Positions 4,743 through 35,161 of a DNA stretch of 35,161 nt are shown here, piece after piece. A program made the translations under genes and the position numbers. Source of the stretch: Saitoella complicata NRRL Y-17804. Taxonomy: Eukaryota > Ascomycota > Saitoellomycetes > Saitoellales > Saitoellaceae. The notes under the pieces are model-generated. The model searched no databases and was not told where the DNA came from. It saw only the letters and a program-made list of their open reading frames with translations. Where the stretch lies: positions 365,210-400,370 of the forward strand of contig NW_017566992.1 in assembly GCF_001661265.1 (NCBI RefSeq), given 5' to 3'. How positions within the stretch are numbered: position 1 is the stretch's first letter; each line of letters starts with the position of its first letter.

Positions 4743-7700
4743 CTAGTGACTTTCCCCCATGATATACACCACATCAGTCTTCTTAAGAACCGTTGCTGCC
4801 TCCGGATTGACGACCACGTACGGAAGAGCAGCGCCGCGATGCGCAGTGGTCCGGTATAAGCCGATTGGAACCTTGCTTTGCCGAAAGAGATAACGAACAA
4901 GAGCTCCATATTCTCGTCCTGCCTCGGGTCAAAAACTGTATATTCCGCATAGAGGACCGACTTACCGATGTATTTCTCCATGATTGGACTGCTGGTGATC
5001 GGAGCAGCTCCATTGACTTGTTCCGCCAGCGGAGCAATACCAAGGAAAAGTTTGAACAGATAAAGAACATGACGATTGTGGAAGCTGTAACTTCGCGTTA
5101 GTGATTTGTGACCACTTAGAGATCACGCCAAGATACCATTGGGAAATCAGAGGCTGAATTTGTGATCCGGAAATGACATGCCCGCTCATGAAACTGGGCC
5201 TTACGAGGGCTTGAACCCAATCGGCCTCAGGAAACCCTATGGCGGATGTTAGCTGATGCAAAGTACCCAAAAGTGTAAGTGTACGAAAGAAGCTCACCAA
5301 AGGTTTCGGACTCTCCGATCAGTTTGAACGTCTCACGCTGTGAGCAAGCTATGACAATGAGTACCTCTTCACGTTCATTCATGGACTCGATGTTTAACGC
5401 GGTCAAGAGCGTCATAGCATCCGCTGTTCTGGAGCTATATGGCGTTGTTAGTTAAGCACAGCAAAACGTGATGGTTGGCTTACTTCGACTGCTCCTCGAG
5501 TGGACCTAACACCACAATCTTTGCCGCCTTTCTCACGTTGCACAACTCCAGATCACGCCGACTGGTCCCACTGCCCGAAACGTACATGACGTCCGTCCAT
5601 TCATTCAGAACCTCGGCAAGAATAACATTGGGCCCGAGAATCACGATGTACCGTCCTCGTTCTTTCGGATCAAGACTTTGACGGATGGTCGAGACAAAGG
5701 CATTGAGCGTCGTCGTCGATGGGTGCGAGCAGTCACAAACAAGGATATGGTCTTCGAACTTTGTCGAGAAGATATCGTTACCCTTCAGGGGCAGTGGCTT
5801 CTGTGGGGGTGTCCGGTGGAGCTCAGCGTCTTGAGGGATGAGCATGTGCGGTCCCCCATCACTGGAGATCCGCTGTACTCTCGGTCGTCCATCACTGCCG
5901 TTGGGTGGCGAAGTTGAGACGTTCCCCTCCAGCAGCGGCGTCTGTTCGTCTACGGGCATATCGAAGGTTTGCGCCTTCCTGAAGAAAGATAGCTTACTCT
6001 TACTTGCCATGGTCTTCCCCGCTCCTGGACCTCGAGGAAGAATCCTAGTCGTCTTCGCCATAGCTGCGCTTTTCTGTGTCCCAGGCAAATCAGCTGGCAC
6101 GAAACGCGAAGGTCCACTGGCCTCACTCGCTTGATTACCGAACACCTCGGAGATGTCAAGCCCACCATCGGCCATACCGAACGTGGCAACCAGATCCGCT
6201 GCCTCAGCATCTCCTGCAATGACGAAAACATGTTCAGATCCACTGATGATGCGCTTCGCAGGGTTGAGAAGGACCTCGAAGTGTGCGTGACCCTCAACAC
6301 GCGCCGAATCTTTCGGCTCGTGCTGAACTGCAAGGCCTACGAGGAGTATGCCATGAGCAGCAAACAAGACTTCTGCGGCCTCAGAGAATGTACAGCCAAC
6401 AAGATGTTCCGAGAAAGTCGTGATGTACGTTTCACAAGAGGCGCCAGCAATATACTCCTCCATAAAGTCGAGATGGCTTTCTCGAGCTCGCCTGAGGAGG
6501 TCTTCTGCTGTACCAGTCGCTATGCTCGTGGCTAGTAAAATGAGAAGACTCGACAAACCTGGCACCAAGATACTCTGTGCCAACAGCCCCATCACCAACT
6601 CCGGCGTACACACGACCTCATTGGCCAAATACTCAAAGTGACTCGCATTCTCCGCCTTCAAAATCTGCGCATAAAGTCTCATGTGCCGATTATACTTCTT
6701 CAAACTCAAAGCCGCCATCATCTGTTGCGCGTCCATTTCATCCAGGTCATCCGATTCTGGTTCAGAATGATGGGCGAGGAGGAATGCGGCGGACGCAGAG
6801 GCTGCTTTGACTTTCTGGAGAGAGCGAAAGGAGACAGCAGAGCCTTTGACGTAGGTTACGCGTTGAGAGTACATTGGTTGTGCAAGAACGAGTTTGAGTT
6901 CTTCATCAGGTTCCGCGGGGTGGAGGATTACCACGCGCGTGCGAATGGATTCGTGACCGTGATCCATGCTGAAGAATTCCCGAAGAAACTCGATTAGCTG
7001 CAGCGTACGGAACTCGCCCGTTACCAATACATGAGGTAACGTGTCTGGGTTCTTGAACGAATGCTCGTACTTGCTTTTGGATTTGATAAGCGTGACCAGA
7101 GAGGAGATCCGCGTTGGCATGAACAGGGCACCTCCGAGGATCACCAGAAGAACGATGATGCGGGAGAAAACCGTGTCGGGTACCCCAGCATTGAGGTTCA
7201 TAGAGGTGATAGAGCCCACTGCCGTGAAGAAGAAAGCGTCAAAGAAGGTGAGCTTAGGGTCCTTGTGCGCGTGGACAGCCTGCTTGTAAGTGACGAGGTG
7301 GAGGTACGAAGCCAAGAAAGACAGCGTCAGGAGGATTGTAGTAGCCAACTGAACCGCCTTTCGTACGATCAAGCTCATGTGAGGTAACACCGTATCTTTC
7401 CCCAATGGCTTGTAGAGATGACTGAGGGACTCATGAAGCCTCACGAATCGGAAGGGATACAGGAAGATCAAGCTCCCGGCACTCATGTACGTCGTGTCAA
7501 TATCTGGCAAGAAGACACCCCCGATAGACTCCGTTTCGTCGACGACCCATGAGACGAGCACCGAGAAGCAAGAGACCCAGGTACCATAAGCCCACACACT
7601 GGCTGAAAACCGCGGCCGATTTTCAGCTATCCAGATTCGCGGCAAGAACTGCAAAAAGATAAGAACAGCGAGGGCCCGGTCAATCCGTTTGCAAGGCTCA

Positions 7701-8095
7701 GGAAGAGCCTGTGGCGTGGACTCCTTTCGTGCGAACCGAGTATTGTAGATATACAGACATGCAAACGCCAACGAAAGTATCGCGTCGAACATTTCCCAAA
7801 GCCGTCCAAAGACATGAGAGTCCACTGTCAATGCAATGCGCTGCTTCAAAGTGGGTTTCCTGGTGCGGTGAACGTACGGCCCAGAAGAACGATTGGGCAG
7901 GAAGGACTCCACAGAGAGGAACCGCTCATGGTTATTAATGACTGGCAGCTTTGATGCAGACGGACTGGAGACAATTGGTAAGAGAGATTTGGGGAGGAAG
8001 AAGCGGCCGCCGGTAGCAGCGTCCTTCTTCTTCCGTTCACCTGCTTGGTTTGCGCTTGGCGACACCGAAGCTCTCCTCTTCAATAAAGTCGCCAT
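4743..8095 (-). CDS. BK/Slo-type ion channel with RCK domains and an atypical pore
   Basis: Predicted 1047-residue membrane channel related to calcium-activated (BK/Slo) potassium channels. Exons: 8095-5484, 5434-5298, 5236-5137, 5084-4966, 4918-4743. The four introns of 47-61 bp have clean GT/AG ends, and the exons sum to 3144 nt. Order: a basic cytosolic N-terminus; about six membrane segments (residues about 100-340); a first RCK-like Rossmann region (about 353-470); the BK-alpha signature near 478-525 (LYAQILKAENASH... GLLAQSILVPGLSSL); a long disordered linker; and a second RCK-like region from about 780, ending in VPIGLYRT... PYVVVNPEAA... VVYIMGESH. The pore helix and inner helix are recognisable (TFFDAFFF at about 283-290, ILGGALF at about 319-325). 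However, the selectivity filter at about 291-299 reads TAVGSITSM where potassium channels have TVGYGD. The S4-like segment carries few charges. Family assignment is firm; potassium selectivity is doubtful. Confidence 0.9.
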
Positions 8096-8279
8096 GGTCG
8101 TTGCTGTTCGTCATCACTGCTACTATTGTTCTTATATTGGCCATGGTGTTGTGCACGGACCTCGAATGTTTTGGCTGAGACGGGGACGTTCATGAATTTG
8201 CCGTTTTGGGAAATTCGAACTCCAACCTTGTGGCTGCAACGTCGTCTCAACTTTTTGACCCCATCCAACGAAAATCCCA
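8096..8279. promoter_or_regulatory. Short divergent promoter region
   Basis: The 184 bases between the start codons of the minus-strand channel gene and the plus-strand aminopeptidase gene must hold both promoters. No clear TATA box was seen. Confidence 0.45.
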
Positions 8280-9478: not shown

Positions 9479-12057
9479 TCATACTTTTATGACAAAGTCG
9501 TCATCACCAGCCAACTCCTGTCTCAACACACTCGTCAAAATCCACTCCGTAGAGTAAACCTTTGGATCTTCTCCTTTCGCACGGGCAGCCTTCACCAGCT
9601 TGTCCCACTGCTTCCGATCTTTCTCGATGCTGACAATGACCCTCTCCACCCCTTCCTCCTTCGTCGCCAACTGCCTTGCACTCGGCACGCCGATCTCCAC
9701 CTTTCCCCCATTAGCCTCAATGATCCGCGTGGAGGGCTCGACACCACCCTTGATCCCCGTCGTCAAATGAACGATATATCCTTTAAACAGCGTTCTCTGA
9801 TTCTTCCTCGCACGAGCGAGTGTGTCGGCCAGCTTACACTTATACTGCGTCTCCATCTTTTTATCCTGCAGGACGTACTCATCCACATCAACAATCTTCC
9901 GATCAGCCAGACACACTTCCAACCACTCTGTCGAAATGATGATAGGTGCGTATGGGATCGCTGACATGAACTTCTCTGTTCGGAGAATTCCTGGTGCAGC
10001 AAGGTGTGTACAGTCTGGTGCCGTACTGACGAAGTCAATGCCGAGTTCAGTTAGTTCGTCAACTTTCACATCATCCCAGTCTTTGTATCCGGTGACCATA
10101 ACCCGAATACCAGAGGAGGGACGCGCAGTAGTACTGACACTCCTCGCCCTGCCCGTCCCATTTCCAGCGGCTTTCTTCGACGCTTCCGCCACAACAGCCT
10201 GCTTCGTCTTCTTGCTCTTCTTCGCTGGCGGCTGCTCTTCAGCTGGTGTCGATGACCTTGGCCTAAGAGGGAGCGGAGGTTCAACAATCGACGACGTCTT
10301 CCTCCTCTTCTCCTTCTCATACGCGACAACGTCGGGCATGATAACACTGTGTAATCTAGCAATAGCAACATCCGCTGCCTTCCTCTTCCCAGAACTCGGT
10401 GGTTCGCTGGACAGATGCGCTAAACGTCCCCTCGACGTTGGCGTTTCCTGGGGAAGTTTCGTGGTCCGTGGGCGAGGTGTGGGCGTATGTGCCGTTGCTG
10501 GAGACGTTAAATCTCTGTCCTTCAATCCATCGGATGGCAAAGCACTGGACAGCCCGCTCGTATGCGGCGCCAATATAGGCTTCGAGGGCTTTGTCGTGGT
10601 TGGCTCTTCCTCTTCATCGCTCTCCTCTTCGTCCTCGCTTTCCCAGAATTGACGCAGTGCTTCGCCGTCAATAGGCGTCTTATACACAACCTCCATCAAG
10701 TTCCGACCCTCCGGTAATGCAGTGAACCTACTCTCCGTCGGGCTCATCGGACACCACTTCGCATATGTCTCCTCCAACCAAAGATGATTCACCACGACTA
10801 ATCCCCAACTTCGTGCATGTTCATATTTCGAGCCAGTCGGTGATGCAGTAATCAGATGCGTATTCTCGTTTTGTCGCATACTCTTCGTGAACTTCGCCCC
10901 CGAGGCAAGGACAAGCTGTTCGAGGTAGGTACGGGTATTGCCGGTGTAATTCGAGACCGTGATGACCATGTTCCTCATGTGAGGAAGTCCGCCTTTCACC
11001 TTGGGGTAGTGAAGCAGATGAACCCGCGGTGAAATCCATTGGGTGTGAGCGAGCATCCAATACAGCCAGATTAAGTTGCCCACAACGAGGTCTCGCTTGC
11101 TCGCGTCCACGAAGTCATCACCTTCTCGCCATTGTCCAACATACACATCTGCGTTTGCCAACTGGTCCACAGGTACACCGCCGGCATTCGAAATCGTCTG
11201 TTGCAATGACTGACGCAGATGCGGTGCCACCTCCCAATCCTTGGCCAAGAAGAACTTTCGACCGGAAAGGAAGGGACTTGTTGGTTGTGGAGGCTCACTC
11301 GGCAAACGGGATGGATCCGCATGCGTGTACTTCCCCTCCGCACTCGCCTCCGCTGGCGGCACCGGTGGCAGTGATCCATCCGGAAGGTTAGCCCCCTTGC
11401 AAATCTCCGGCACTTCCCCATCTCCCCCAAACAAATACGGCCCCTCCCCAATCCTCCTCCTCAACTTCAAACAATCATCAAACCAATGCGGTAACACAAT
11501 TTTAATCCCCAACCCCGGTCTCGCCATCGCTTGCCTACATTTTTCATTATTGGTGGAAAGCGCGACGATGTGTGTTGTTGTTCGGAGGAGTTTATCGGTG
11601 TACTCGCCGCCGAGGGCTTTAATGCCTCCATAGATTGCGTCGCGGTCGCCGGGGGGAAGTTCGGAGCAGGTGACGAGGAGGCCGGAGAAGATCATGCGTG
11701 GGTCTGGAGAGTAGCATTGCGGACTATTGCCACTCGTTAGCTAGCAGTCATTTGATCGATGGAATATGCGCACTTGAGCTGCTTACTCCGCTGCACAGAC
11801 GTCTCCACCCACTTCGGCGTAACAACCTCAACACCCCGCGCTTCACACTCCCTGAACTCCTTAAAATCAATATCCCCCGTAACGATATGCGTCAATTTTC
11901 CCAAATCAATCCCATCCGGCATATGCGGTGCTTCTCGTGCCCCATTACTCAGAAGTTTCTGTCGAAGCTCGGCGGTCCGGGCTTCGTCTATCGAGGGTTG
12001 ACAAATATAGAAGACGACATCTTCGAAGATCAGCGGTGATGGCTCATTGGTAGCCAT
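9479..12057 (-). CDS. RTT107: Six-BRCT genome-stability protein, Rtt107/Brc1-like
   Basis: Predicted 842-residue scaffold for replication-associated DNA damage repair. Exons: 12057-11774 and 11723-9479. The single intron (50 bp, GTGCGC...AATAG, branch GCTAAC) restores the family motif YSPDPRMIFSG across the junction. BRCT-like folds are visible at about residues 5-95, 105-193, 245-340 and 344-420, then at about 634-715 and 739-840 after a long Ser/Pro/Lys-rich linker with an acidic patch (SEDEEESDEEEE). Four N-terminal plus two C-terminal BRCTs is the layout of yeast Rtt107 and fission yeast Brc1. In those proteins the C-terminal pair binds phosphorylated H2A. The BRCT1 region (FEDVVFYICQ... 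THIVTGDIDF) and the Trp residues typical of BRCT helix 3 (WVETS, HWFDDC, LWLEET, EWLEVC) are present. PTIP-like proteins are more distant alternatives. Confidence 0.88.
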
Positions 12058-24764: not shown

Positions 24765-26316
24765 TCACATAGGCTTCTCCGCGACGATGGCATACCTCTC
24801 AATCGTTCCCCTTGCCAAGAGCTGTAAACACGCGTTAGCTTCTTTCACGTCTGAGATAAGCCCAGGTTTACCGCAGCCTTCCATCCATTCCGAACCTTCC
24901 ACGGTCTCCACTGCTCCTGGTTACACACGGGACTCCCCTCGGTCTCTCTGCAAAGAGCGTAGGCCACGCGTGCTTCTTGATCCTGTCCGCCATTGCGTAA
25001 GCCAAGTGATCTCTGTACATGACGAGAATAGACGTACCGTAATGTTCTGCACGACCTTCACATGCATCCCAGCCTCGTTCACTGCCTTCAACAACCGCTC
25101 AAGCGACAACAACGCACACGAGCTCCTCTCAAGCGGATAGTCCACAAACTCCATCGCTTCCGGAGTCCACTTAGGCAATATTGTAAGCTCCAACAACATC
25201 CGCCCACCAGGCGCCAGCATAACCCGGACCCTCTCCAATGTCGCCGGAGTGAGGTGCGAGGGATCACGGAGGATCACAGTGGTATACTGAGACGCAAGAG
25301 TGGACTTACGCAGAGCGAGGTCAGTCACGAAGGAGATGCGATTGACTTGTTTTCCAGCATATGCGACGATGTGAGAAAGTTTGTCTTGCGCGTCATCACG
25401 GTGTGGTTTGAGAACGTGGAGGTCCTCGAAGTCTATAAGACTTGTCAGTCAATGACACAATGCTACCTCAGCTGTCAACGGTACCAAAGTACTTGAGCAA
25501 ATGCAGTTCGAAGAACCCGTCCGTAGGCGTGGCACACAAAATCCTATTGGTATGCTTGAGATCGAGCATGTTCGCGAGGCGTGTATGCTTCGTCAAGAGG
25601 GTTTGGCGAGCCGGTGAATTCGGCGTCAACTCCAGCGGAATGGCGAAAGTCTTGACAGAACTGTAGACTCGGATTAGAACCAGTTTTGGCACTCTCTCAG
25701 TTCTGTCTACCTCATAGGGATGTCTGCATGCCGGGCATGCTCGAGCAGGTTGTCAAGGTAGAAGTTGACGATTGTCCGCAGATGATGAGGATACCACTTA
25801 GCAAAGACCGACTGGTTTGCGCCTTGCCATAACCTGCCCATAAGTCAGCATACACCCGGCTTCGAACACGAATGCACCGCACGTCTCCCCCAAATCACCA
25901 AGACTAGCCTCCACCTTCCCTTCAGTCAAATGCCTAATCAACTTCCCAATCTCGATCCTTGATGTCACAGTCTTGTACTCCTCACTCTGCCAATGACTCG
26001 TCGTAGGCGTAAACAGATTCGACAAGGGGACTTTAGCACGCGGAACCCAGGCGAGATAGACATTATAGCAGAGCCAACAAAACATGAAGAAAGCAGAAGA
26101 GACTAAGAGCAAGGAAGACTTGTGTTCATCCATCCAGGCGAAGAGGATGAGGGCGTACTTCCACAGGACTTGGAAGACGCGGACAGCGAGATGTTCAAGG
26201 CACTCCACGGCTTTGCTGGCCTCAACACGGATGGCGGCGGCTGAGAGCTGGCGTCCAACGAATGTTGAAAGAATGCCATGGATCCATTCAAGGAGTCCTA
26301 AAGGTAAGAGCTCCAT
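24765..26316 (-). CDS. Membrane-anchored methyltransferase-like protein, one apparent frame slip
   Basis: Exons on minus: 26316-25711, 25660-25485, 25432-25038, 24982-24872, 24821-24765, with introns of 50-55 bp and good GT/AG ends. The N-terminus has a hydrophobic span (SLLLVSSAFFMFCWLCYNVYL, about residues 68-88). The C-terminal part resembles a SAM-dependent methyltransferase: ATPTDGFFELHLLKYF, then YTTVILRDPSHLTPATLERV, then MLAPGGRMLLELT. It ends LARGTIERYAIVAEKPM. Total exon length is one base over a multiple of three. Near 25830-25840 the frame changes from GCMLTYGQV to WQGANQSVFAKWYP. Either one base is inserted there (deleting it gives 447 residues), or an unseen intron of about 58 bp (GTGTTC...CCAG) removes the junction. 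The substrate is unknown. It could be accessory to secondary metabolism, given the dead monooxygenase beside it. Confidence 0.6.
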
Positions 26317-26653
26317 GATAAGAATGTTGGTGGTGCAGAACGTTGAGTGCGGCCGACGCGCTCATCCAGCTGGCGGTCCACTGCACAAACGCGTGGGGAA
26401 CCGTGTGGGGCACCTCAGCCCCTGATTCCCCCAGGTTCAAGCTGACTTGACCAAACTTGAAGAATGGAAGGTTCAGCTGGAAGGAGTAGTCAATATTTCT
26501 TGGGCAAGATGTAGCTATAAGAGTATGGAAATAGTAGAAATCAGTTAGATGTACCGTGCGTGCCGTGTTCAGCGGATTCGAAAGAGATTAAGGTCATGTT
26601 GCGATTAAGATGGCCATAAATGTTATCATAATACTCTATCCCATAGCTCTCCT
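26317..26653. other. Intergenic, no supported gene
   Basis: About 340 bases: promoter of the methyltransferase-like gene and terminator side of the SidJ-like gene. No motif stood out. Confidence 0.3.
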
Positions 26654-27921
26654 TCACGCCTGGGCACGCTCGACTGCGTTCAAGTACCCCACGACCCTCC
26701 TAACCAAATCCCTCCTCGGCTCCGCCTGATCATCATTACTCAACGCATGCGAAGCCCCCTGTATAATCCCACTCCACTCCGTATCCCAAACCTCCCTACC
26801 CTCTCCCCCGGCATCCGTTGCATCCTTCCACCTCAACATCAACTTCTCCTTATCGACCCACCCCGGGACAGCTTGATCCGCGCCGGATACCATGACCATG
26901 AGTTTGTAATTGAGGAGCTGGTGGGAGTGAATGAGTCCGAATGTTTGTTGCAGGTGGGTGTCGGGGAGGTCGGAGGAGAAGAGGTCGTCTGGGCGGGGGC
27001 AGTGAGGAGAGTCGGGGCTCACGAGGCTTAGGAAGCGACGGGCGCTGAGGGGGGTATTACCATACCCAATTTGACATGTCAACGACAACGGCAGCAACGA
27101 CTCGCATGACTGATCACCACGTTCGAACTCCCTTGCCATGGTGAGGAGTTTGTCATACACCGCTTGACAATCAGCTGGAGATTTCCCCAACCATTCACAT
27201 CCGTACTTCAATACCCAATGCATCGCTTGCCTATCGGACACCGGTGCTTGCATGATCGCTCCATCCAGCGGCAAACGCTCCTCATGCTTCAAATCTGGAT
27301 CAAATACCGGGGTACTCGTGTGCGGGTTCGGTCGGTATAGGTAGTGCAATACCTGCTGACTCCCCGTCGAATGACCGATGAGCACGATCTTCCCATTCCC
27401 GTTGCCGTACTTGCTGGTCTTGTACTCCTTCACATATCTCAAGCAGGTCGCTATTTCGTCGGTATCTCGATCGAGGTGCCCGAGGCCCCATGATTGGTAC
27501 GATGAGGATAGGTTCAGTGTGAAGAGGGACCACTCTGTAGGCTCGAGAGCACGGGCAATATCGGCCATGTAGGAGGTTGTGCCGAGACCATCTCCTAGAC
27601 CTCCGATGAAGACGAGACTGTGGGGTTTGCGAGTGGTATTGGAGGTGAACTCGAATGTGGTGAGGGTCTCGGTCTACATCGTAGATGTTAGCGCAACTGA
27701 GTGTGGAGGAGAGCAGAGAGGAAGCGTACATAATGGTGCAAGATCCCTGGGAGGCCGCCCATGGGCCAGAATTTGGAGTACATCTTCGAAGGAGAACGGG
27801 AATGGTGTGATTGTAAGATGGAAGTGACCGTAATGGAACGACGGAAACGAGGATGACTCTTGAGTAAGAATAAAGCCGTCGTAGCCAACGATCCAGCGAG
27901 CAACCAGGCGATCTCAATCAT
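26654..27921 (-). CDS. sidJ: SidJ-family (DUF1749) alpha/beta hydrolase, likely siderophore esterase
   Basis: Predicted 403-residue serine hydrolase. Exons: 27921-27730 and 27673-26654, with one 56-bp intron (GTACGC...TGTAG). The N-terminus has a hydrophobic stretch (WLLAGSLATTALFLL) that may anchor it. The core then reads HSLVFIGGLGDGLGTTSYMA, the DUF1749 start, and IVLIGHSTGS with the nucleophile Ser at about 166. Further on are a likely acid in VSGADQAVPGWVD and a His in QGASHALSNDD. In Aspergillus fumigatus the family member SidJ hydrolyses fusarinine-type siderophores inside the cell, as I recall. Here the gene sits directly downstream of a siderophore transporter on the same strand and carries three ATCAGAT-type GATA motifs upstream. 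This supports a role in releasing iron from imported siderophore. A general esterase role cannot be excluded. Confidence 0.82.
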
Positions 27922-28314
27922 GTCCGATCCTTGCACAATCTGTGGCAGGAGGAAGGCCCATTTCACCTAAGTGACCGCAGCTGCTGTAACGTCGAGGTGC
28001 AGCAGCTACGGGGAATGACTCGGGGCATCCTCTCGCCGGGGCAATTTCAACGCTAGCGATCTGACAAGCTGTTAGCCTCGGGTGACAGGCTAATCTGATC
28101 CAGGACGTCAAGCCACGCGCGCCAAGGGCAACAAGGCGCGATGTAATCTGATCTAGCCTCGGATCAGATACTCCCGAGCCCGACCGCAATACGAAGTTGA
28201 ATTAAAAAAATGAGTGAATTATAGCAGGATTAAGTATACTTTTGTTGTCACGAAGACGAATCAACAGCCCCAATCATTCCCTTCACAGCATCCAACTGCC
28301 CATCATTCAACCCC
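27922..28314. other. SidJ-like promoter and SIT 3' flank
   Basis: The 393-base gap upstream of the SidJ-like gene (minus). It holds the cluster of GATA-type motifs annotated separately and an A-rich run at 28204-28210. No RNA gene was seen. Confidence 0.5.
28091..28171 (-). promoter_or_regulatory. Cluster of three iron-GATA-like motifs upstream of the SidJ-like gene
   Basis: TAATCTGAT (ATCAGATTA on minus) occurs at 28091-28099 and 28144-28152, and ATCAGATAC on plus at 28163-28171. Each matches 8 of 9 positions of the fungal iron-repressor GATA consensus ATCWGATAA. The last two form an 8-bp perfect inverted repeat (ATCTGATC, 8-base spacer, GATCAGAT). They lie 170-250 bases upstream of the start codon at 27921. 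Binding by a Urbs1/SreA/Cir1-type factor is inferred. Confidence 0.6.
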
Positions 28315-30276
28315 CTAGAACAAGACTCCCTTGGTTTGCGCCTTGGTCACCTTCAAGTCCTTCACCAAGAACATCCAGAAGAGCGAAAGCGCCATGATAC
28401 AGGTACCAGCCGTCAACATCCACTTCTGCGAAATCGCATAAGAGTCACTGATAGCATCACGCGCCGCCGTACCCCTCTCGTAGCCCAATTGAACATCAAG
28501 CGAATCGTAGATGTCCTCCCAACTGTCCACAACGTCGGCAGGAAGAAGACGCTGCAAAGCGGCGGGCAAAGTGTGCGTCCAGATGGCTCCAGAGATAGAG
28601 CTTCCGATAGCTCCTCCCATGTTACCGAAGACATTGAGGAAAGCGAGCGCGGAGGCAGCATTGTTGTGATCCGCGACAGCCAAAACAGCGACCTGTTGCA
28701 CGATAATCATCGTACCACCAGAGAACGCAAGGAAAACCTGACACATGATGTTCCACCCCACCGACCAATGCGGCTGACGGAAGTAAATCATCAATCCCTC
28801 ACCGAGAAGGTAAAGTGGCACAGACCAAAGCAACAACCACCTAAACCTCCCCGTCCTCCTGATCGAGTACCCGACAACCAAGAGCCAAACACCAGAAACA
28901 ACGTCGAAGATACTACTAATATACCCCGCCGTCTCAAGACTAACACCGTACACAACCTGCAAATAACTCGTCCAATATCCATTCCAACAATAATAGGCGA
29001 TTTGGTACGTCGCATCAATCAAACATGCACCCAGGATGGTCCTCGTCGCGAGCATTTCCCACGGGAGGAAAGGCTTGGGAGCGACCCAGTGTTCGACGGC
29101 GGCGAAAGCGAGAAGGCAGGCGATTCCGAAGACGAGCATGATGATGATGTGCGCGGTTTTCCAGTCGTCGGGGGCTGAGCCGGCGAGGTTGAAGGGGAGG
29201 AGGAAGAGGACGAGGCCGGCGGTCAGAAGAATGACACCCAAGACTGTACCCGGGAGGTTAACAACCAGAATTGACATGAAGCCGTAGGAGAGAACTCACG
29301 ATCGAACTCGATAACGTAGTGCTTGACATGTTGCAAAAATGTTCTGCCACTGGGCTCCTTTTCCTTCAACAAACCTCTCTTCTTCGCCAAATGCCTGTTG
29401 TACCTCAACAAACAGAACATAGGCGCAGCAACAACGGGGAGGATAATAGCGAAGCATCCGTATCCCCACCTCCAGTTCGACTCGTAGAATCGCGCAGCAG
29501 CTGCAGGACCAGCGTAAGCCGTAATGATGTACGGCGACGATGTAAACGCAAACGCAAGACCTCGATCCCGAAGCGACGAAGTATCAGCCGTAATAACATC
29601 AACACAAAAAATCAACCCATAAAACCCGATATTATAAAACACCTGGGCAGCACAATACGTCCCAATCCCAGTACACGTCGCACTCAAAATCAACCCCAAC
29701 ACCGCGAACACCACCATCAACATGAACCCCACGGACCTATCCCAGAGGTTGAGGATTTTGGCGACGGGCATGTAGGTCGCTGCGCCCATTACGGAGGCGA
29801 CGATGTCGATTACGGGGAGGAGGGAGTGGGATTCGAAGTCGGAAGTGATGTAGGCGGAGAGGTTGTAGGTGATCTGAGATTGGAAGGCGTTGACGAGGTA
29901 GAGGCACCACATGCTATCGATCGCATTGTCAGTAACTGGTAGGTAAGTGGAGAAATAAGAGGAGGAGTTGAACGTACAGGCCATAGGCAGTAGCCAAGGA
30001 CGTCTTGGTCCATGTCAAAGTGATGGCTTCAGCTTGCGTGACACCATCTTGTGCAGCCTCGTTGGGCACGGCTTCCTCCGGCAATTGATCCTCGCCGACG
30101 AACACCCTCCCTGGGGCCTTACTGTCACTGACGCCTTGCTCGGCGGATCCGTGGGTGTCGAGGTTGTACTGAGGAACATCGGTACCAGTGGAGAAGCCAC
30201 TGTCCGAGGTTGGCTCTGGGACAGGAAAGAACTTCCTACGGAAGGCCGCAGCCGCGTTGGAGAACTCTTTTCCCAT
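28315..30276 (-). CDS. SIT1: Siderophore-iron transporter (SIT family, MFS)
   Basis: Predicted 613-residue plasma-membrane importer of ferric siderophores by proton symport. Exons: 30276-29978, 29913-29300, 29243-28315 (sum 1842 nt), with introns of 64 and 56 bp. The first junction restores AYGLMWCLYLVNAFQSQITY and the second EFDLLGVILLTAGLVLFLLP, both hallmarks of the SIT1/MirB/Str1 group. A roughly 90-residue polar N-terminus precedes about 14 hydrophobic segments. Other family features are YNLSAYITSDF, NIGFYGLIFCVDVITADTSS, RNRHLAKK-like RYNRHLAKKRG, and WNGYWTSYLQVVYGVS in the second half. I chose MGKEFSN as the start because a TATA box lies about 70 bases upstream; in-frame upstream codons precede that box. 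Its promoter holds GATA motifs like those of the SidJ-like neighbour downstream. Confidence 0.95.
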
Positions 30277-30344
30277 GCTCTTGACTGTGTGAAGCGTGTC
30301 GTCTACGAGCAATGGCAACAGGGAGTGGACGACCGGGCAGACCC

Positions 30345-30353
30345 ATATAAATA
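30345..30353 (-). promoter_or_regulatory. TATA box of the SIT gene
   Basis: Read on minus the sequence is TATTTATAT, about 70 bases before the start codon. It supports the choice of start at 30276. Confidence 0.5.
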
Positions 30354-30455
30354 CTTTTTTTTCGCAACCCCTCCAGGCTGCCCGTCGTCCGCCGAGGCTT
30401 GCAAGGCGATGAGCTCGGCCTCTGCCACTCCTAAACGAACACATTATCTTCCGGG

Positions 30456-30611
30456 ATCAGATCGATCAGATTACGCCCAACAATGCAGTCTTCAAGCCAA
30501 GCGAGCCATCCACGCTCCCCGTCACATTGAAAAAATCATGGGATCCATGCTTAGGCTTTGGGTTAGGGCAGCCCAATGCAACGCAGTAAGACCCGGGTGC
30601 GGATCAGATAA
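30456..30611 (+). promoter_or_regulatory. Cluster of three iron-GATA-like motifs upstream of the SIT gene
   Basis: ATCAGATCG at 30456-30464 is followed directly by ATCAGATTA at 30465-30473. An exact ATCAGATAA lies at 30603-30611, where the preceding G also fits the extended RATCWGATAA consensus. A further GATAA core (TTATC on plus) lies near 30444. The cluster is 180-335 bases upstream of the transporter start codon. ATCWGATAA is the published site of fungal iron-responsive GATA repressors. The role here is inferred. Confidence 0.65.
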
Positions 30612-31054
30612 GATTAGTCCTGCGAAAACGCGATCTAGGGTCACTAAAGAGGCCTAGGGAGTAGGGTCGGTACGAGATCCGGTCTGGGTACCGGTGCAAT
30701 GGTAGCGGACCTAGCTGGGAAGCCAAACAGCCTGGCCTCGGCTTTTAGCTTGGCGAGAATTCCCCGAGTGACGCTTAAGGGTCCTTGAAGACGGAAGCTC
30801 TCGAGGCTGTTTGGTCGCCCGCGTAGGCGCAAGCGCGCGCTTCGTTGCGTCCGGACTTCGGCGATTTTGTTTGCACGAGGCGCCCTCTGCAGACTCAATG
30901 CACCCTGATAACCTTAACCAACAACAACGACATCAACACATCAGGCCTCCCTCGCAGTCAGTCAGTCGCCTATTCACCTGTTTTCACGTCACGTCTCGTT
31001 TCTTTTCTGCTTCGCTCTTCTTTTTGGTGTTAATTACCGGTCTCCTCAGCATTC

Positions 31055-32379
31055 ATGGATCAGATCCTCAAGTGCAACCACCTCCGATGCAGGGCGGCTT
31101 TGGGCAATCAAGGAGTCGTTACGACGTGTTCGCACATCTTCTGCGTTGATTGGTGGATTTTGACAATAACCTCGAACCCTAAGTTCGAGCTGATTGAAGT
31201 CTACAGTGCGAACCAACTCTTCACCGCCGACAGAACGTGTCCTGCTTGTGAGACGACGCTTGGTGAACCGGATGTATGCACCGATATCATGCCTGAAAAG
31301 CACATATACTGACAGTCTGTGAAGGACGTCGTATTGACTAATCTCAATCCCACTGAGTAAGCTTTTTCCCCCGATGTATGCTGGTTACAACCTAACAATG
31401 GTATTCAGTGACTACAAGACGGTGAACAGGAATGTTTCGAACACTTGTTCAAGTAGCTAATTCGTTCACAGAGCGTCCTTGCAGGTCTTTCTCCGAACAT
31501 CATTGTGGAGATATGCAGCCGTGCTTTAAGCTTCTGGACGTACCAAGCTACTCAGGAGATGTGCGGCATCTAACTTTTGCACTACTACCATTGTTAACGA
31601 CTATATGCAGCGTGTACCAAGAGTTCATGTCGAAGACGCTGCAGGAGAAGTATGGTGCATTGAATGCCCAGATGGATAGTGTCGTTCGAGATGCGAACAA
31701 CGAGATTACCGGTATGCACAACCGTCCTCGACTGAATGATCCATCTAACGTGAACTATAGCTTTGCAAGAGAAGTTGGAGACTACTAAGCAGCAACAAGG
31801 CAACGAGAAGAGGCGTAACCACGAACTCATCGAGAGCTTGCAGGACAAGTCGAGGCAGTTCAGCAAGCTACAAGTGAGGTCCTCCTTTGTTTCGCTTTGG
31901 ATCATGACTAACTGATGACCGTACAGCTCCTCTACGACAAACTCAAACGCAAGGCTCTCCTCTCCCCCATGCAAAACGCCGCAACCCAAAACATCGACGC
32001 AGCAGCGTACCAAAACATGCCCACCCACGCCTCACCACCCGCCGGCAAGATCTCTTTCCCTGGCCCTCGTGCCTTCGCTCCCGACAACAGGCAAGAACAG
32101 CAGCAACCTCAAGACTGGTCTCAGGACGGTCCGGTTCAAGTCGCGCAGACTCCTCGTCCGCATCACAACGTCGGGAATCCGAGGAATGCTGGGAGGACGC
32201 CGTTGGCTGCGATGCATGGGAATACCCCGTATGCCGGACGTCCGAGGGGAGGGAGTGGTGGGAATGGTGGTGGGTTGATTAAGCCTATGGGGGCCACGCC
32301 GATGGGAGGGAGGGGGAATCCGGGGTTGATGAGGCCGAGCCATACGAGGACAGGAGGAGGAGGAGGATGGGGTGGGTAA
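31055..32379 (+). CDS. HEI10: HEI10-type RING E3 ligase for meiotic crossover
   Basis: Predicted 321-residue RING and coiled-coil protein. Exons: 31055-31152, 31207-31273, 31325-31356, 31409-31421, 31472-31560, 31611-31711, 31761-31873, 31927-32379 (sum 966 nt). Introns are 49-54 bp; exon 4 is only 13 nt. The RING is a perfect C3HC4: C7, C12, C25, H27, C30, C33, C44, C47. C33 is formed across the first splice junction. Next come DVVLTNLNPTDDYKT, SVLAGLSPNIIVEICSRALS and FWTYQATQEIVYQEF, all close to CCNB1IP1/HEI10. A coiled coil (EKLETTKQQQGNEKRRNHEL) and a Gly/Arg/Pro-rich tail follow. An alternative acceptor at 31315 would add three residues. HEI10 accumulates at crossover sites on meiotic chromosomes. 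Confidence 0.92.
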
Positions 32380-32572: not shown

Positions 32573-35023
32573 TCAGTGTTCGATCTTTCTCGACCCTCTC
32601 ATCTGCAACAATGTATTATCAGGCCCATCCTCCCTCCCACACTCCACACAAATCAACCTCGCAAAGTCCTTCTGTTCCCAATAACACGAATGCGCATAGA
32701 TCATCTGATAATACTGCGAATCTAACACACCACCAGTATTAGGTAACACAAAATCCACCTGTCCGTTATCATTTAACGCCCTCAACCTCCTCTCCGCCTT
32801 TGCCTCCCTCGAGAAATCATGCACTTCCAATTCTATAGTCGACGGGAGCCTCCGACCGCCTCCAGGGCGAGGATCCTCACCCCCAGCCCCCGTAATCGCA
32901 ACACTAGCGTTCTTGATCCCATGCGCCAAACTCTCCATCACCTGCGTCCCCCCAACACCGGGAACGACGGTCGGCTTCAACGTTTCCGCATACTCCTTAT
33001 CCACCGTCGGCGCCAGCCTCATCGCAACCGGATCAGCAGAGTGGTAAATATTGTACACGTTTTGTACGGCTGGGCAACCGTATTTTCCGGGACCGTCGTG
33101 GGATTCGGACCGGGGGAGGTTGGCAGTTTTGGGGGTGTTGGGGTTGGCGCGGGGGATGAGGTTTGCTTGGTTTAGGAGCATAAAGAACCCGACGGGACTT
33201 CCGCAGAAGAACAGATTGTGCGTTTCGAACTCGAACTGATCGGTACTCTCCTTTCCCTGGTCTTGTCGATCAGGCGTCCACACGTCCGTCTTGGTCGGCT
33301 GTCGAGATAAAATGTCCATACTGATTGCACTCCCCAAGGAATGGCCAACAATATGCACCCTCCCCCCTCTCTCCACAAACCCCGGATCGTTCCTTATCCA
33401 CAGCCTCCACACCCGATTTGCCTCCCCCACCACAGCCCTCGTGATCCGATCCTTATGGTGTGACAGATAGTATGGGATGTCAAGCATCACGTCAGCGATT
33501 AACCCACGCACCGCTGGGATCCCTTCGGGGGTGATGTCGTTTAGATTGTATTTCCCGCCGAATTCTTCGGTGCCGCCGACAGCTTCGGTCTCGTCCTCTT
33601 CGCCCCTCTCGGCGTCGAATACCAGTTTCTGGCGCCAGTTGACGGGGAGGACTTGGGGGTGGTAACCCTCCCGAACATGCGCACTCGCTGCCCCAAGCCT
33701 TTCCTCTTCGAGGAGGATGCGAAAATGGTTGATGGCATGCGTGAACGTAAAACTCTCCACCCTCTCAGAGAGTTTCTGTCCAATACCATGCACGACCAAA
33801 ATCAAATCCGTCACGGGCGCAGGCGTCGGATCCTCATCGATGAGTTCCGTCGCACTCGGTTTCAACTTGCTCTCGACACTCATCTCGCTAGGAGACATAC
33901 TCGGTCTTCTCGTCCCGTTCGTCCTCGCACTCGCAACACTCAAACTCCTGGTCCGTGCCCTTGCCCTACTCTGACTTTGCTTCGAAGACTTCCCAGCCTT
34001 GGTAGGGGAAGTATAGTCATACCCTCTGACAATTCCAACACCCACAGGACCCCTCCCCCTCCCCAAGCTCCCCAACAGACTCTTCGCCAGACTCAGCTTC
34101 CCTTGATGGAGCATAATCCACGCCTCCCTCTCATCCGTATATATCACATAACGATTCTTTAACAACGGATCCACTTGTAACTCCTCAACGGCTGAGGGAT
34201 CGGTGGAGGACGGGTGAGAAGTGGAATCGAGTTCATATCCGAGTTTATGCTCAGCCTCCTGCCCCACCTCCTTCGCAGCCGATAACTCAAGCGCATACAC
34301 GTCTGTATAAGGCCGAATAAACCGATATCCGGCTTCCAATGCCTCCTCCAACACTGGCTCGATAGGAAAGTTTGTCTCGGCATAAAACCACGTGGCACGG
34401 ATGACTTGGCTGTGGTCTGTCAGTGTTGCGAGGGGAGACCAATAGATCGGCTCCAGCGTCATGGTTGGCAGATGGACTTTGTGGAGGCGGGAGATACCGA
34501 CGACAACTTCTTCGAGTGCTGATTCCGTGCCGGTTTGGCCTTCATTTGTGAGGTTCGGTGTATCTTCTTCTTCGGGTTTCTCCAGCACCGCAGCCTCCTC
34601 CTCTGCCATGACATCTTCCGCAGTCTCCGGCGGTGATGCAGGCTCGAACCGGCCGAAAGGATTAACTCTCTCCCTCTTTGGTGTTTTCGTAATGATCAGT
34701 CTCTGTTTCGCCTTTAGTTTCCGCTTCTCCTCTTCCACCTTCTTGATTTCTCGCATTTTCTTCCCATCCCTCCCCCTCCCCTCCTCCGTCCACCTCCTCC
34801 ATCCCTGTTCCAAATCCTCATTGTCCCTGGGCGCAAACGGCGTCCACTTGATCTGTGCATGCGGGATATCTTTCAGTGATGGTGGTTGGCTGGTTGGGTA
34901 GGGTGCCAGGGGGTCATTGAGGTCGAGGGGGGAGCAGTGGAACCACCATTGGCATGGGGGAGGGATGTCGGAGGGGTCGGTTAGGGTTGAGAGGACGCTT
35001 TGGTCTTGATCGAAGTGATCCAT
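32573..35023 (-). CDS. DDHD-domain phospholipase A1 (PA-PLA1 type)
   Basis: Single-exon gene of 816 residues for an intracellular phospholipase of the DDHD family (mammalian DDHD1/DDHD2/SEC23IP, yeast Ddl1), which cleaves phosphatidic acid and related phospholipids. The N-terminus reads CQWWFHCSPLDLNDPLAPYP, typical of the family, followed by a basic, acidic and Pro-rich stretch. The lipase part has TDLILVVHGIGQKLSERVES and the nucleophile elbow HIVGHSLGSAIS at about residue 560. The C-terminal DDHD region holds NLFFCGSPVGFFMLLNQ, then VYNIYHSADPVAMRLAP (conserved Asp), and ends RLRALNDNGQVDFVLP... AHSCYWEQKDFARL (conserved Asp and His). Length fits the family. It converges on HEI10 with a 193-base gap. 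Confidence 0.93.
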   Translation of the reverse strand: MDHFDQDQSVLSTLTDPSDIPPPCQWWFHCSPLDLNDPLAPYPTSQPPSLKDIPHAQIKWTPFAPRDNEDLEQGWRRWTEEGRGRDGKKMREIKKVEEEKRKLKAKQRLIITKTPKRERVNPFGRFEPASPPETAEDVMAEEEAAVLEKPEEEDTPNLTNEGQTGTESALEEVVVGISRLHKVHLPTMTLEPIYWSPLATLTDHSQVIRATWFYAETNFPIEPVLEEALEAGYRFIRPYTDVYALELSAAKEVGQEAEHKLGYELDSTSHPSSTDPSAVEELQVDPLLKNRYVIYTDEREAWIMLHQGKLSLAKSLLGSLGRGRGPVGVGIVRGYDYTSPTKAGKSSKQSQSRARARTRSLSVASARTNGTRRPSMSPSEMSVESKLKPSATELIDEDPTPAPVTDLILVVHGIGQKLSERVESFTFTHAINHFRILLEEERLGAASAHVREGYHPQVLPVNWRQKLVFDAERGEEDETEAVGGTEEFGGKYNLNDITPEGIPAVRGLIADVMLDIPYYLSHHKDRITRAVVGEANRVWRLWIRNDPGFVERGGRVHIVGHSLGSAISMDILSRQPTKTDVWTPDRQDQGKESTDQFEFETHNLFFCGSPVGFFMLLNQANLIPRANPNTPKTANLPRSESHDGPGKYGCPAVQNVYNIYHSADPVAMRLAPTVDKEYAETLKPTVVPGVGGTQVMESLAHGIKNASVAITGAGGEDPRPGGGRRLPSTIELEVHDFSREAKAERRLRALNDNGQVDFVLPNTGGVLDSQYYQMIYAHSCYWEQKDFARLICVECGREDGPDNTLLQMRGSRKIEH

Positions 35024-35161
35024 GGCTATGGTGGGATTTGTTTGTTTGGAGTTTTTGTTTGCTTAAGGGTTCTTGCGGGATGCAGCCAACGTCACCTTGC
35101 ATACTGCTGGTTGCAAAATGCCTGTCGCAAACTGCAGGTAGCTGCACATGCTCCGTAAGTC
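35024..35161. other. Upstream edge of the DDHD gene
   Basis: The last 138 bases hold the proximal promoter and leader of the minus-strand phospholipase gene. No TATA box was seen before the window ends. Confidence 0.4.

What the first reader, a model, noticed from the sequence alone, without database searches (positions are those of the whole stretch)
26654..30611. Candidate iron-regulated siderophore uptake-and-hydrolysis module (SIT transporter plus SidJ-like esterase)
A SIT-family siderophore importer and a DUF1749/SidJ-like hydrolase lie next to each other on the same strand. Each has a cluster of three ATCAGAT-type motifs 170-340 bases upstream of its start, including one exact ATCAGATAA. 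The sequence shows the genes, motifs and positions directly. Family knowledge links SIT to ferri-siderophore import, SidJ to intracellular siderophore hydrolysis, and ATCWGATAA to iron-GATA repressors. Joint iron control is inferred. Such a pairing is known in ascomycete siderophore clusters; in a basidiomycete, and without biosynthesis genes in the window, it would be a compact scavenging module for host-made or foreign siderophores.
Basis: partly seen in the sequence, partly recalled or inferred. Interest (0 to 1): 0.8.

Follow-up and report, generated by a model that had tools for sequence, protein, structure and literature searches.

The report
Borrowed siderophore-scavenging gene pair in yeast
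An early-branching ascomycete yeast carries, side by side, an importer and a cutting enzyme for an iron carrier that it probably cannot make itself; both genes look acquired from a mould, and both have upstream sites like the iron switch found near the yeast's own iron genes.

Summary
In detail: two intact minus-strand genes, a SidJ/DUF1749 esterase (27783-26654) and a SIT transporter (30276-28315), each with three ATCWGAT sites upstream. The host is not a basidiomycete but Saitoella, probably S. complicata, an ascomycete. The pair looks foreign. Both proteins group with Botryosphaeriales moulds (support 98/96 and 100/99), with 76% and 81% identity to Neofusicoccum, while a neighbouring gene reaches 44% at most. 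Vertical descent of the SIT is rejected (p-AU 0.0016). All NRPS condensation matches lie in one ferrichrome-like locus, so fusarinine C is probably not made. Best reading: the import and hydrolysis ends of a mould fusarinine C cluster (MirD, SidJ), gained by horizontal transfer, used to take foreign fusarinines. Substrate and iron response are inferred; nested or sister to Botryosphaeriales is unresolved.

The parts
26654..27783 (-). SidJ-like esterase gene, 357 aa; exons 27730-27783 and 26654-27673, one intron 27674-27729
   Evidence: Model; DUF1749 308.5 bits; 6gup 524 bits over residues 2-354; Ser120, Asp284, His327 present
28315..30276 (-). SIT siderophore transporter gene, 613 aa, MirD-type by tree position and linkage; exons 29978-30276, 29300-29913, 28315-29243
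   Evidence: Model; MFS_1 72.9 bits; trees
28093..28169 (.). Three ATCWGAT sites (28093, 28146, 28163) in the SidJ upstream region, 310-380 bases from its start
30456..30611 (.). Three ATCWGAT sites (30456, 30465, 30603) upstream of SIT, 180-327 bases from its start, the last an exact ATCAGATAA (30603-30611)
32573..35062 (-). Neighbouring DDHD-domain gene, used as a control for ordinary descent; not part of the module
   Evidence: DDHD 139.7 bits; 37-44% identity in the 119 listed hits other than its own entry

Best explanation
The pair is a horizontally acquired fusarinine-scavenging module. A MirD-type SIT imports ferri-fusarinine C, or a close ester-linked fusarinine, released by moulds. 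A SidJ-type esterase then cuts the ester bonds inside the cell, and the weaker monomers give up their iron. Both promoters carry sites of the type that the yeast's own SreA/Fep1-like GATA protein should bind, so both genes should be repressed in iron-replete cells and expressed in iron starvation. The pair corresponds to the import and hydrolysis ends of the mould fusarinine C cluster (A. fumigatus Afu3g03390 to Afu3g03440) without its biosynthesis genes, and came from a Botryosphaeriales-related donor, at least for the SIT before the two known Saitoella species split. Shown by computation: gene identity, adjacency, grouping with Botryosphaeriales, motif regulon, no NRPS locus besides a ferrichrome-like one. 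Inferred: substrate, transfer as one piece, iron response.
For: Gene models and families; SidJ against 6gup 524 bits. Saitoella groups with Botryosphaeriales: SidJ 98/96, SIT 100/99, and a tree with 17 Pezizomycotina rows held together without Saitoella is rejected, p-AU 0.0016. Identity to Neofusicoccum 76% and 81%, to the non-Botryosphaeriales moulds compared 62-70% and 65-70%; neighbouring DDHD gene 37-44%. SIT and SidJ share a contig in 18 of 20 mould species that have both in the listed hits (hand count). ATCWGATAA near 7 of 8 siderophore-gene starts; two-finger GATA protein with a cysteine-rich stretch. Six condensation-domain matches, all in one 16-kb locus on C2. In A. fumigatus MirD takes up fusarinine C (PMC9600649, abstract) and SidJ hydrolyses it (PMC10500206, passages).
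Against: Botryosphaeriales without Saitoella is not rejected for SIT (p 0.21) or SidJ (p 0.43), so the donor may be only a sister line. For SidJ no clean test of vertical descent was possible: its one significant test (p 0.02) is confounded, because Dothideomycetes are not one clade in that tree anyway. The groups tested were named after the quick tree had been seen. Third-position GC gives no foreign signal. No Saitoella SidJ is in the listed hits, so its presence in S. coloradoensis is unverified. The SidJ promoter has no complete ATCWGATAA. The single acyltransferase's best solved relative is SidF (159.5 bits, over its last 200 residues), so a SidF-like activity is not excluded. That the SIT clade is MirD rather than MirB rests on linkage to SidJ, not on a direct comparison with named A. 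fumigatus proteins.
Confidence: 0.7

Rival explanations
1. Vertical relic: the ascomycete ancestor had the pair, Saitoella kept it and other Taphrinomycotina lost it.
For: S. complicata proteins in general resemble Pezizomycotina most (PMC4447899, whole text), so a best hit in a mould is not by itself evidence of transfer. Third-position GC is ordinary.
Against: Rejected for SIT (p-AU 0.0016). A vertically inherited protein should be about equally far from all Pezizomycotina; both proteins are instead closest to Botryosphaeriales. The neighbouring DDHD gene shows only 37-44% identity.
Confidence: 0.08
2. Same pair and origin, but the cargo is another siderophore (TAFC, coprogen-like or broad range) and the esterase has another main substrate.
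For: Substrate is inferred from clade and linkage only. MirB and MirD are sister clades (PMC9600649, section 8), and the A. fumigatus row P0129 was not checked to be MirD.
Against: SIT and SidJ are linked in 18 of 20 mould species in the listed hits; in A. fumigatus the transporter in the cluster of the putative siderophore-degrading enzyme Afu3g03390 is Afu3g03440, not Afu3g03640 (PMC2610380, passages).
Confidence: 0.2
3. Motif sites are incidental: ATCWGAT sites here serve another GATA factor (for example nitrogen control), not iron.
For: The genome has 12 GATA-finger matches at 10 loci. SidJ has only 7-base cores. Of five loci picked by eye from motif clusters alone, one has no Pfam match, one has an MFS and a Zn-cluster regulator.
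Against: 7 of 8 siderophore-gene starts carry ATCWGATAA within 1 kb, 0 of 2 controls. Two of the five motif-picked loci are FTR1 with a multicopper oxidase, and a ferric reductase. Known Fep1 sites in S. pombe fit ATCWGATAA (PMC2610380, section 12).
Confidence: 0.1
4. Assembly contamination by mould DNA.
For: Both proteins look like those of moulds.
Against: The window lies 365 kb inside a contig of 1,476,293 bases, and S. coloradoensis has the SIT at 97% identity (contig of 486,712 bases).
Confidence: 0.01

Closest known systems
A. fumigatus SreA-regulated gene cluster 3 (Afu3g03390 to Afu3g03440)
   Same: Holds a putative siderophore-degrading enzyme (SidJ) and a SIT (MirD), repressed through SreA (PMC2610380 passages; PMC9600649 passages)
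   Different: The Saitoella pair has no SidF or SidD beside it (their families were searched genome-wide); the two genes are direct neighbours
MirD and SidJ of A. fumigatus (fusarinine C uptake and hydrolysis)
   Same: SidJ-like over its whole length; SIT in the clade that is linked to SidJ in moulds
   Different: Sits in a yeast of another subphylum that probably does not make fusarinine C; function untested
SIT importers for foreign siderophores in non-producing or other-type fungi
   Same: Uptake of siderophores that the cell does not make (PMC10500206, section 5)
   Different: Here importer and intracellular hydrolase are adjacent and seem to have come in by transfer
Intra-kingdom transfer of a fungal transporter gene (FSY1 fructose transporter)
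   Same: Fungus-to-fungus transfer of a transporter (PMC3688497, listing and start of abstract only)
   Different: Here a transporter together with the enzyme for its cargo

Membership tests
SidJ esterase (DUF1749) | DUF1749 over nearly the whole protein and close match to the solved siderophore esterase | tested here: met
   308.5 bits, residues 12-350; 6gup 524 bits. The genome's other DUF1749 gene on C29 reaches 80.8 bits
SidJ esterase (DUF1749) | Ser-Asp-His residues of an alpha/beta hydrolase | tested here: met
   Ser120, Asp284, His327; the surrounding words are in 116, 120 and 119 of the 120 listed homologues. Their catalytic role is recalled
SidJ esterase (DUF1749) | Hydrolyses fusarinine C | not testable with these tools
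   Needs enzyme assay
SIT family, MirD-type subclade | Falls in the clade of mould SITs linked to SidJ | tested here: met
   30-row clade with support 99 in the quick tree, 19-row clade 100/100 in the careful tree; that this clade is MirD is inferred
SIT family, MirD-type subclade | 14 transmembrane helices | not tested
   No topology prediction was run
SIT family, MirD-type subclade | Transports fusarinine C | not testable with these tools
   Needs uptake assay
Fusarinine C biosynthetic cluster | SidD-type NRPS | tested here: not met
   All 6 condensation matches (9 candidates scored) lie in one locus, C2:708983-725073
SreA/Fep1 iron-GATA regulon | ATCWGATAA in the promoter | tested here: inconclusive
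   SIT has one at 327 bases; SidJ has three ATCWGAT but no complete site
SreA/Fep1 iron-GATA regulon | Regulator with two GATA fingers and a cysteine-rich stretch between them is encoded | tested here: met
   L041 2688-4370, C8
SreA/Fep1 iron-GATA regulon | Repressed by iron | not testable with these tools
   Needs RNA data
Horizontal transfer from a Botryosphaeriales-related donor | Gene tree in conflict with the species tree | tested here: met
   SIT: p-AU 0.0016. SidJ: same grouping, 98/96, but no clean test of its own
Horizontal transfer from a Botryosphaeriales-related donor | Nested inside the donor group | tested here: inconclusive
   p 0.21 for SIT, 0.43 for SidJ

The most novel reading that the evidence does not exclude
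The transfer moved a pre-wired unit: importer, intracellular hydrolase and their iron-GATA promoter sites arrived together as one DNA segment and worked at once, because the SreA code of moulds and the Fep1 code of Taphrinomycotina read the same ATCWGATAA word. The import-and-hydrolysis half of a siderophore cluster would then be a portable piracy cassette that turns a ferrichrome-type yeast into a user of its neighbours' fusarinines.
Probability: 0.3. Interest if true: 0.65.

Novelty: new variant of a known kind. Interest (0 to 1): 0.5.

Why it matters
Use of foreign siderophores by fungi is usually put down to native importers. Here a yeast of an early ascomycete line seems to have gained from a mould both the importer and the enzyme needed to open the cargo, without the genes to make it. 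That makes a question testable: can siderophore use spread as a two-gene cassette whose regulation works on arrival, because the iron-GATA word is shared across Ascomycota? The genome-wide motif pattern also gives a predicted iron regulon for Saitoella.

Tried and rejected
Basidiomycete origin: rejected by the 97% match to Saitoella coloradoensis, the taxonomy and the genome size. Contamination: rejected. The genome's other DUF1749 gene (C29) as the native SidJ: far from 6gup (80.8 bits), with no ATCWGAT in the 8 kb read around it. Base composition as evidence of transfer: no support. Third-position GC is 0.66 for both genes, 0.48-0.62 in six other window frames, but 0.65-0.69 in five iron or siderophore frames elsewhere in the genome. 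Border marks: no tRNA in the window, only short or imperfect repeats in 25500-31100. NIS siderophore synthetases: 0 matches. NCBIfam on six frames added nothing decisive. The first SidJ tree, with the distant C29 protein as outgroup, did not finish its careful search and had a very long outgroup branch; it was rebuilt without the outgroup. In searches for Saitoella with 'horizontal gene transfer' (7 of 7 papers listed), 'siderophore' (2 of 2) or 'horizontally' (7 of 7), and for fusarinine with 'horizontal gene transfer' (10 of 25 listed), no title or abstract start that I saw reports this transfer; these papers were not opened. A wider search listed 15 of 5,592.
Full report
What is there. The minus strand carries two adjacent, intact genes. 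The SidJ-like gene is join(27730-27783, 26654-27673), 357 aa; the SIT gene is join(29978-30276, 29300-29913, 28315-29243), 613 aa; all three introns are GT..AG. Pfam gives DUF1749 at 308.5 bits and MFS_1 at 72.9 bits. The SidJ protein matches a solved siderophore esterase, 6gup, at 524 bits over residues 2-354, with Ser120, Asp284 and His327 kept. That 6gup is A. fumigatus SidJ, and that these residues are catalytic, is recalled.

Which organism. The SIT is 97% identical to a protein of Saitoella coloradoensis. The window lies at 365210-400370 of contig 1 of a 14,122,262-base genome, and S. complicata is published at 14.1 Mbp (PMC4447899, whole text read). Saitoella is Ascomycota, Taphrinomycotina. 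That this is S. complicata itself is an inference.

Motifs in the window. The six ATCWGAT sites are as reported, with ATCAGATAA at 30603. They lie 180, 189 and 327 bases from the SIT start and 310, 363 and 380 from the SidJ start. ATCWGAT: 12 in the window against 6.7 in shuffles, reached by 1 of 100. ATCWGATAA: 2 against 0.56, reached by 9 of 100, so not significant alone. The genome has 1,656 ATCWGAT, against 253 for the pattern read backwards, and 180 ATCWGATAA, against 32; reading backwards also changes the base steps, so this control is weak. In the 100 of 1,656 sites listed, only two triplets fit in 160 bases, and they are these two.

Does the motif mark iron genes here? I took siderophore genes found by protein family, not by motif: four SIT-like genes, SidJ, SidA (the one strong match, 323 bits, of 10 for its family), the NRPS and one Acetyltransf_8 gene. 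ATCWGATAA lies within 1 kb upstream of 7 of 8 starts. SidJ is the exception, with three 7-base cores. SidA and the NRPS share one intergenic region, so 6 of 7 separate regions have it; background is 1.27% per kb and the binomial chance 2.9e-11. Two controls, the C29 DUF1749 gene and a C15 MFS gene, had none. Starts outside the window are ends of open frames, not verified. Conversely, five further loci were picked by eye from clusters among the 100 of 180 ATCWGATAA sites listed. One is FTR1 beside a multicopper oxidase, one a ferric reductase, one an ABC transporter; one has an MFS and a Zn-cluster regulator, and one has no Pfam match in the three frames tested. The genome encodes a protein with two GATA fingers and a cysteine-rich stretch between them, the SreA/Fep1 layout. 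ATCWGATAA is the SreA site in A. fumigatus, and known Fep1 sites in S. pombe fit it (PMC2610380, section 12 read; PMC10500206, passages).

Origin. Outside Saitoella the best named hits are Botryosphaeriales moulds for both genes. Identity to Neofusicoccum parvum is 76% for SidJ and 81% for SIT, against 62-70% (7 moulds) and 65-70% (6 moulds) for those compared outside Botryosphaeriales. Tree rows were chosen by me for taxon spread: 50 of 120 listed SidJ hits (850 found) and 53 of 120 listed SIT hits (722 found) in the quick trees, then 27 and 24 in the careful trees. Saitoella joins Botryosphaeriales with 98/96 (SidJ) and 100/99 (SIT). A SIT tree that holds 17 Pezizomycotina rows together without Saitoella is rejected (p-AU 0.0016). 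Against, or open: Botryosphaeriales without Saitoella is not rejected for SIT (p 0.21) or SidJ (p 0.43). The SidJ test with Dothideomycetes (p 0.02) is confounded, since they are not one clade in that tree. The tested groups were named after the quick tree was seen. Third-position GC gives no foreign signal. As a control, the neighbouring DDHD gene finds, besides its own entry, 37-44% identity in the other 119 listed hits (658 found), the named ones Pezizomycotina of several classes. The control matters because S. complicata proteins in general resemble Pezizomycotina most (PMC4447899).

Linkage in moulds. The two misses are Lasiodiplodia theobromae and Aspergillus hiratsukae, where the rows may come from different assemblies. 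Diplodia seriata, Xylariales sp. PMI_506, A. cavernicola and A. homomorphus were left out because their listed SIT is of another kind (by tree or by lower identity). Of the 18, 11 are in the tree and fall in the same SIT clade as Saitoella; the other 7 were not in a tree. Locus tags are consecutive in Aspergillus nanangensis (FE257_000192/000193) and Verruconis gallopava (PV09_08975/08976). Elsewhere this shows shared contigs, not gene order. In A. [quoted passage not shown] A. nidulans AN6238, in the same SIT clade, is placed in the AN6236 cluster by one of the predictions tabulated in PMC3689640 (one passage).

Function. In A. fumigatus MirD takes up fusarinine C and MirB takes up TAFC (PMC9600649, abstract, passages and section 8), and SidJ hydrolyses fusarinine C (PMC10500206, passages; its section on uptake read). 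The Saitoella genome has SidA, one NRPS locus with six condensation matches, one Acetyltransf_8 gene and no NIS synthetase match. That looks like a ferrichrome route, and ferrichromes have no ester bond for SidJ to cut (established knowledge). No SidD candidate was seen, so the pair most likely serves foreign fusarinines. Limits: the genome search scores only its best candidates, and the acyltransferase's best solved relative is SidF (159.5 bits over residues 154-353), so a SidF-like activity is not excluded.

What is open. No Saitoella SidJ appears in the listed hits, although Saitoella rows appear for SIT and DDHD; a gene-model gap and a loss in S. coloradoensis cannot be told apart. Whether the promoter sites came with the genes could not be tested, since I had no mould promoters. 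Verdict: a real pair with strong in-silico support for iron control, most likely a horizontally acquired fusarinine-scavenging module; a new variant of a known kind.

Noticed in passing
L047:1-3775 (own genome C5:42500-46274): An ABC transporter frame of two membrane and two ATPase domains with four ATCWGATAA sites just upstream. In A. fumigatus an ABC transporter (Afu3g03430) lies next to the siderophore transporter of cluster 3; whether this one is related was not tested.
   Followed up: partly
L044:1984-5911 (own genome C3:342983-346910): Divergent FTR1 permease and multicopper oxidase genes with six ATCWGAT sites between them, the usual reductive iron uptake pair.
   Followed up: partly
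L043 (own genome C1:545000-553500): ATCWGATAA cluster beside frames without Pfam match (three frames tested); a possible unknown iron-regulated gene.
   Followed up: no
L049:2902-4440 (own genome C15:150401-151939): A second protein with two GATA fingers, without the cysteine-rich stretch seen in the C8 protein (translation).
   Followed up: no
window 31055 (+): A RING-like gene (zf-RING_5 19.2 bits, below the 27.9 cut-off) starts 779 bases from the SIT start, so it shares the SIT upstream region and its ATCAGATAA.
   Followed up: partly
window 5480-8110 (-): Frame with Slo-like RCK and BK-channel alpha domains (128.8 and 63.4 bits), a calcium-activated potassium channel type in a yeast.
   Followed up: no
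window 9479-11740 (-): Frame with several BRCT domains including RTT107_BRCT_5 (90.6 bits), probably the Rtt107/Brc1 gene.
   Followed up: no
hit list: No Saitoella SidJ protein is among the 120 listed hits, although Saitoella proteins appear for SIT and DDHD; perhaps a gene-model gap in public annotation.
   Followed up: no
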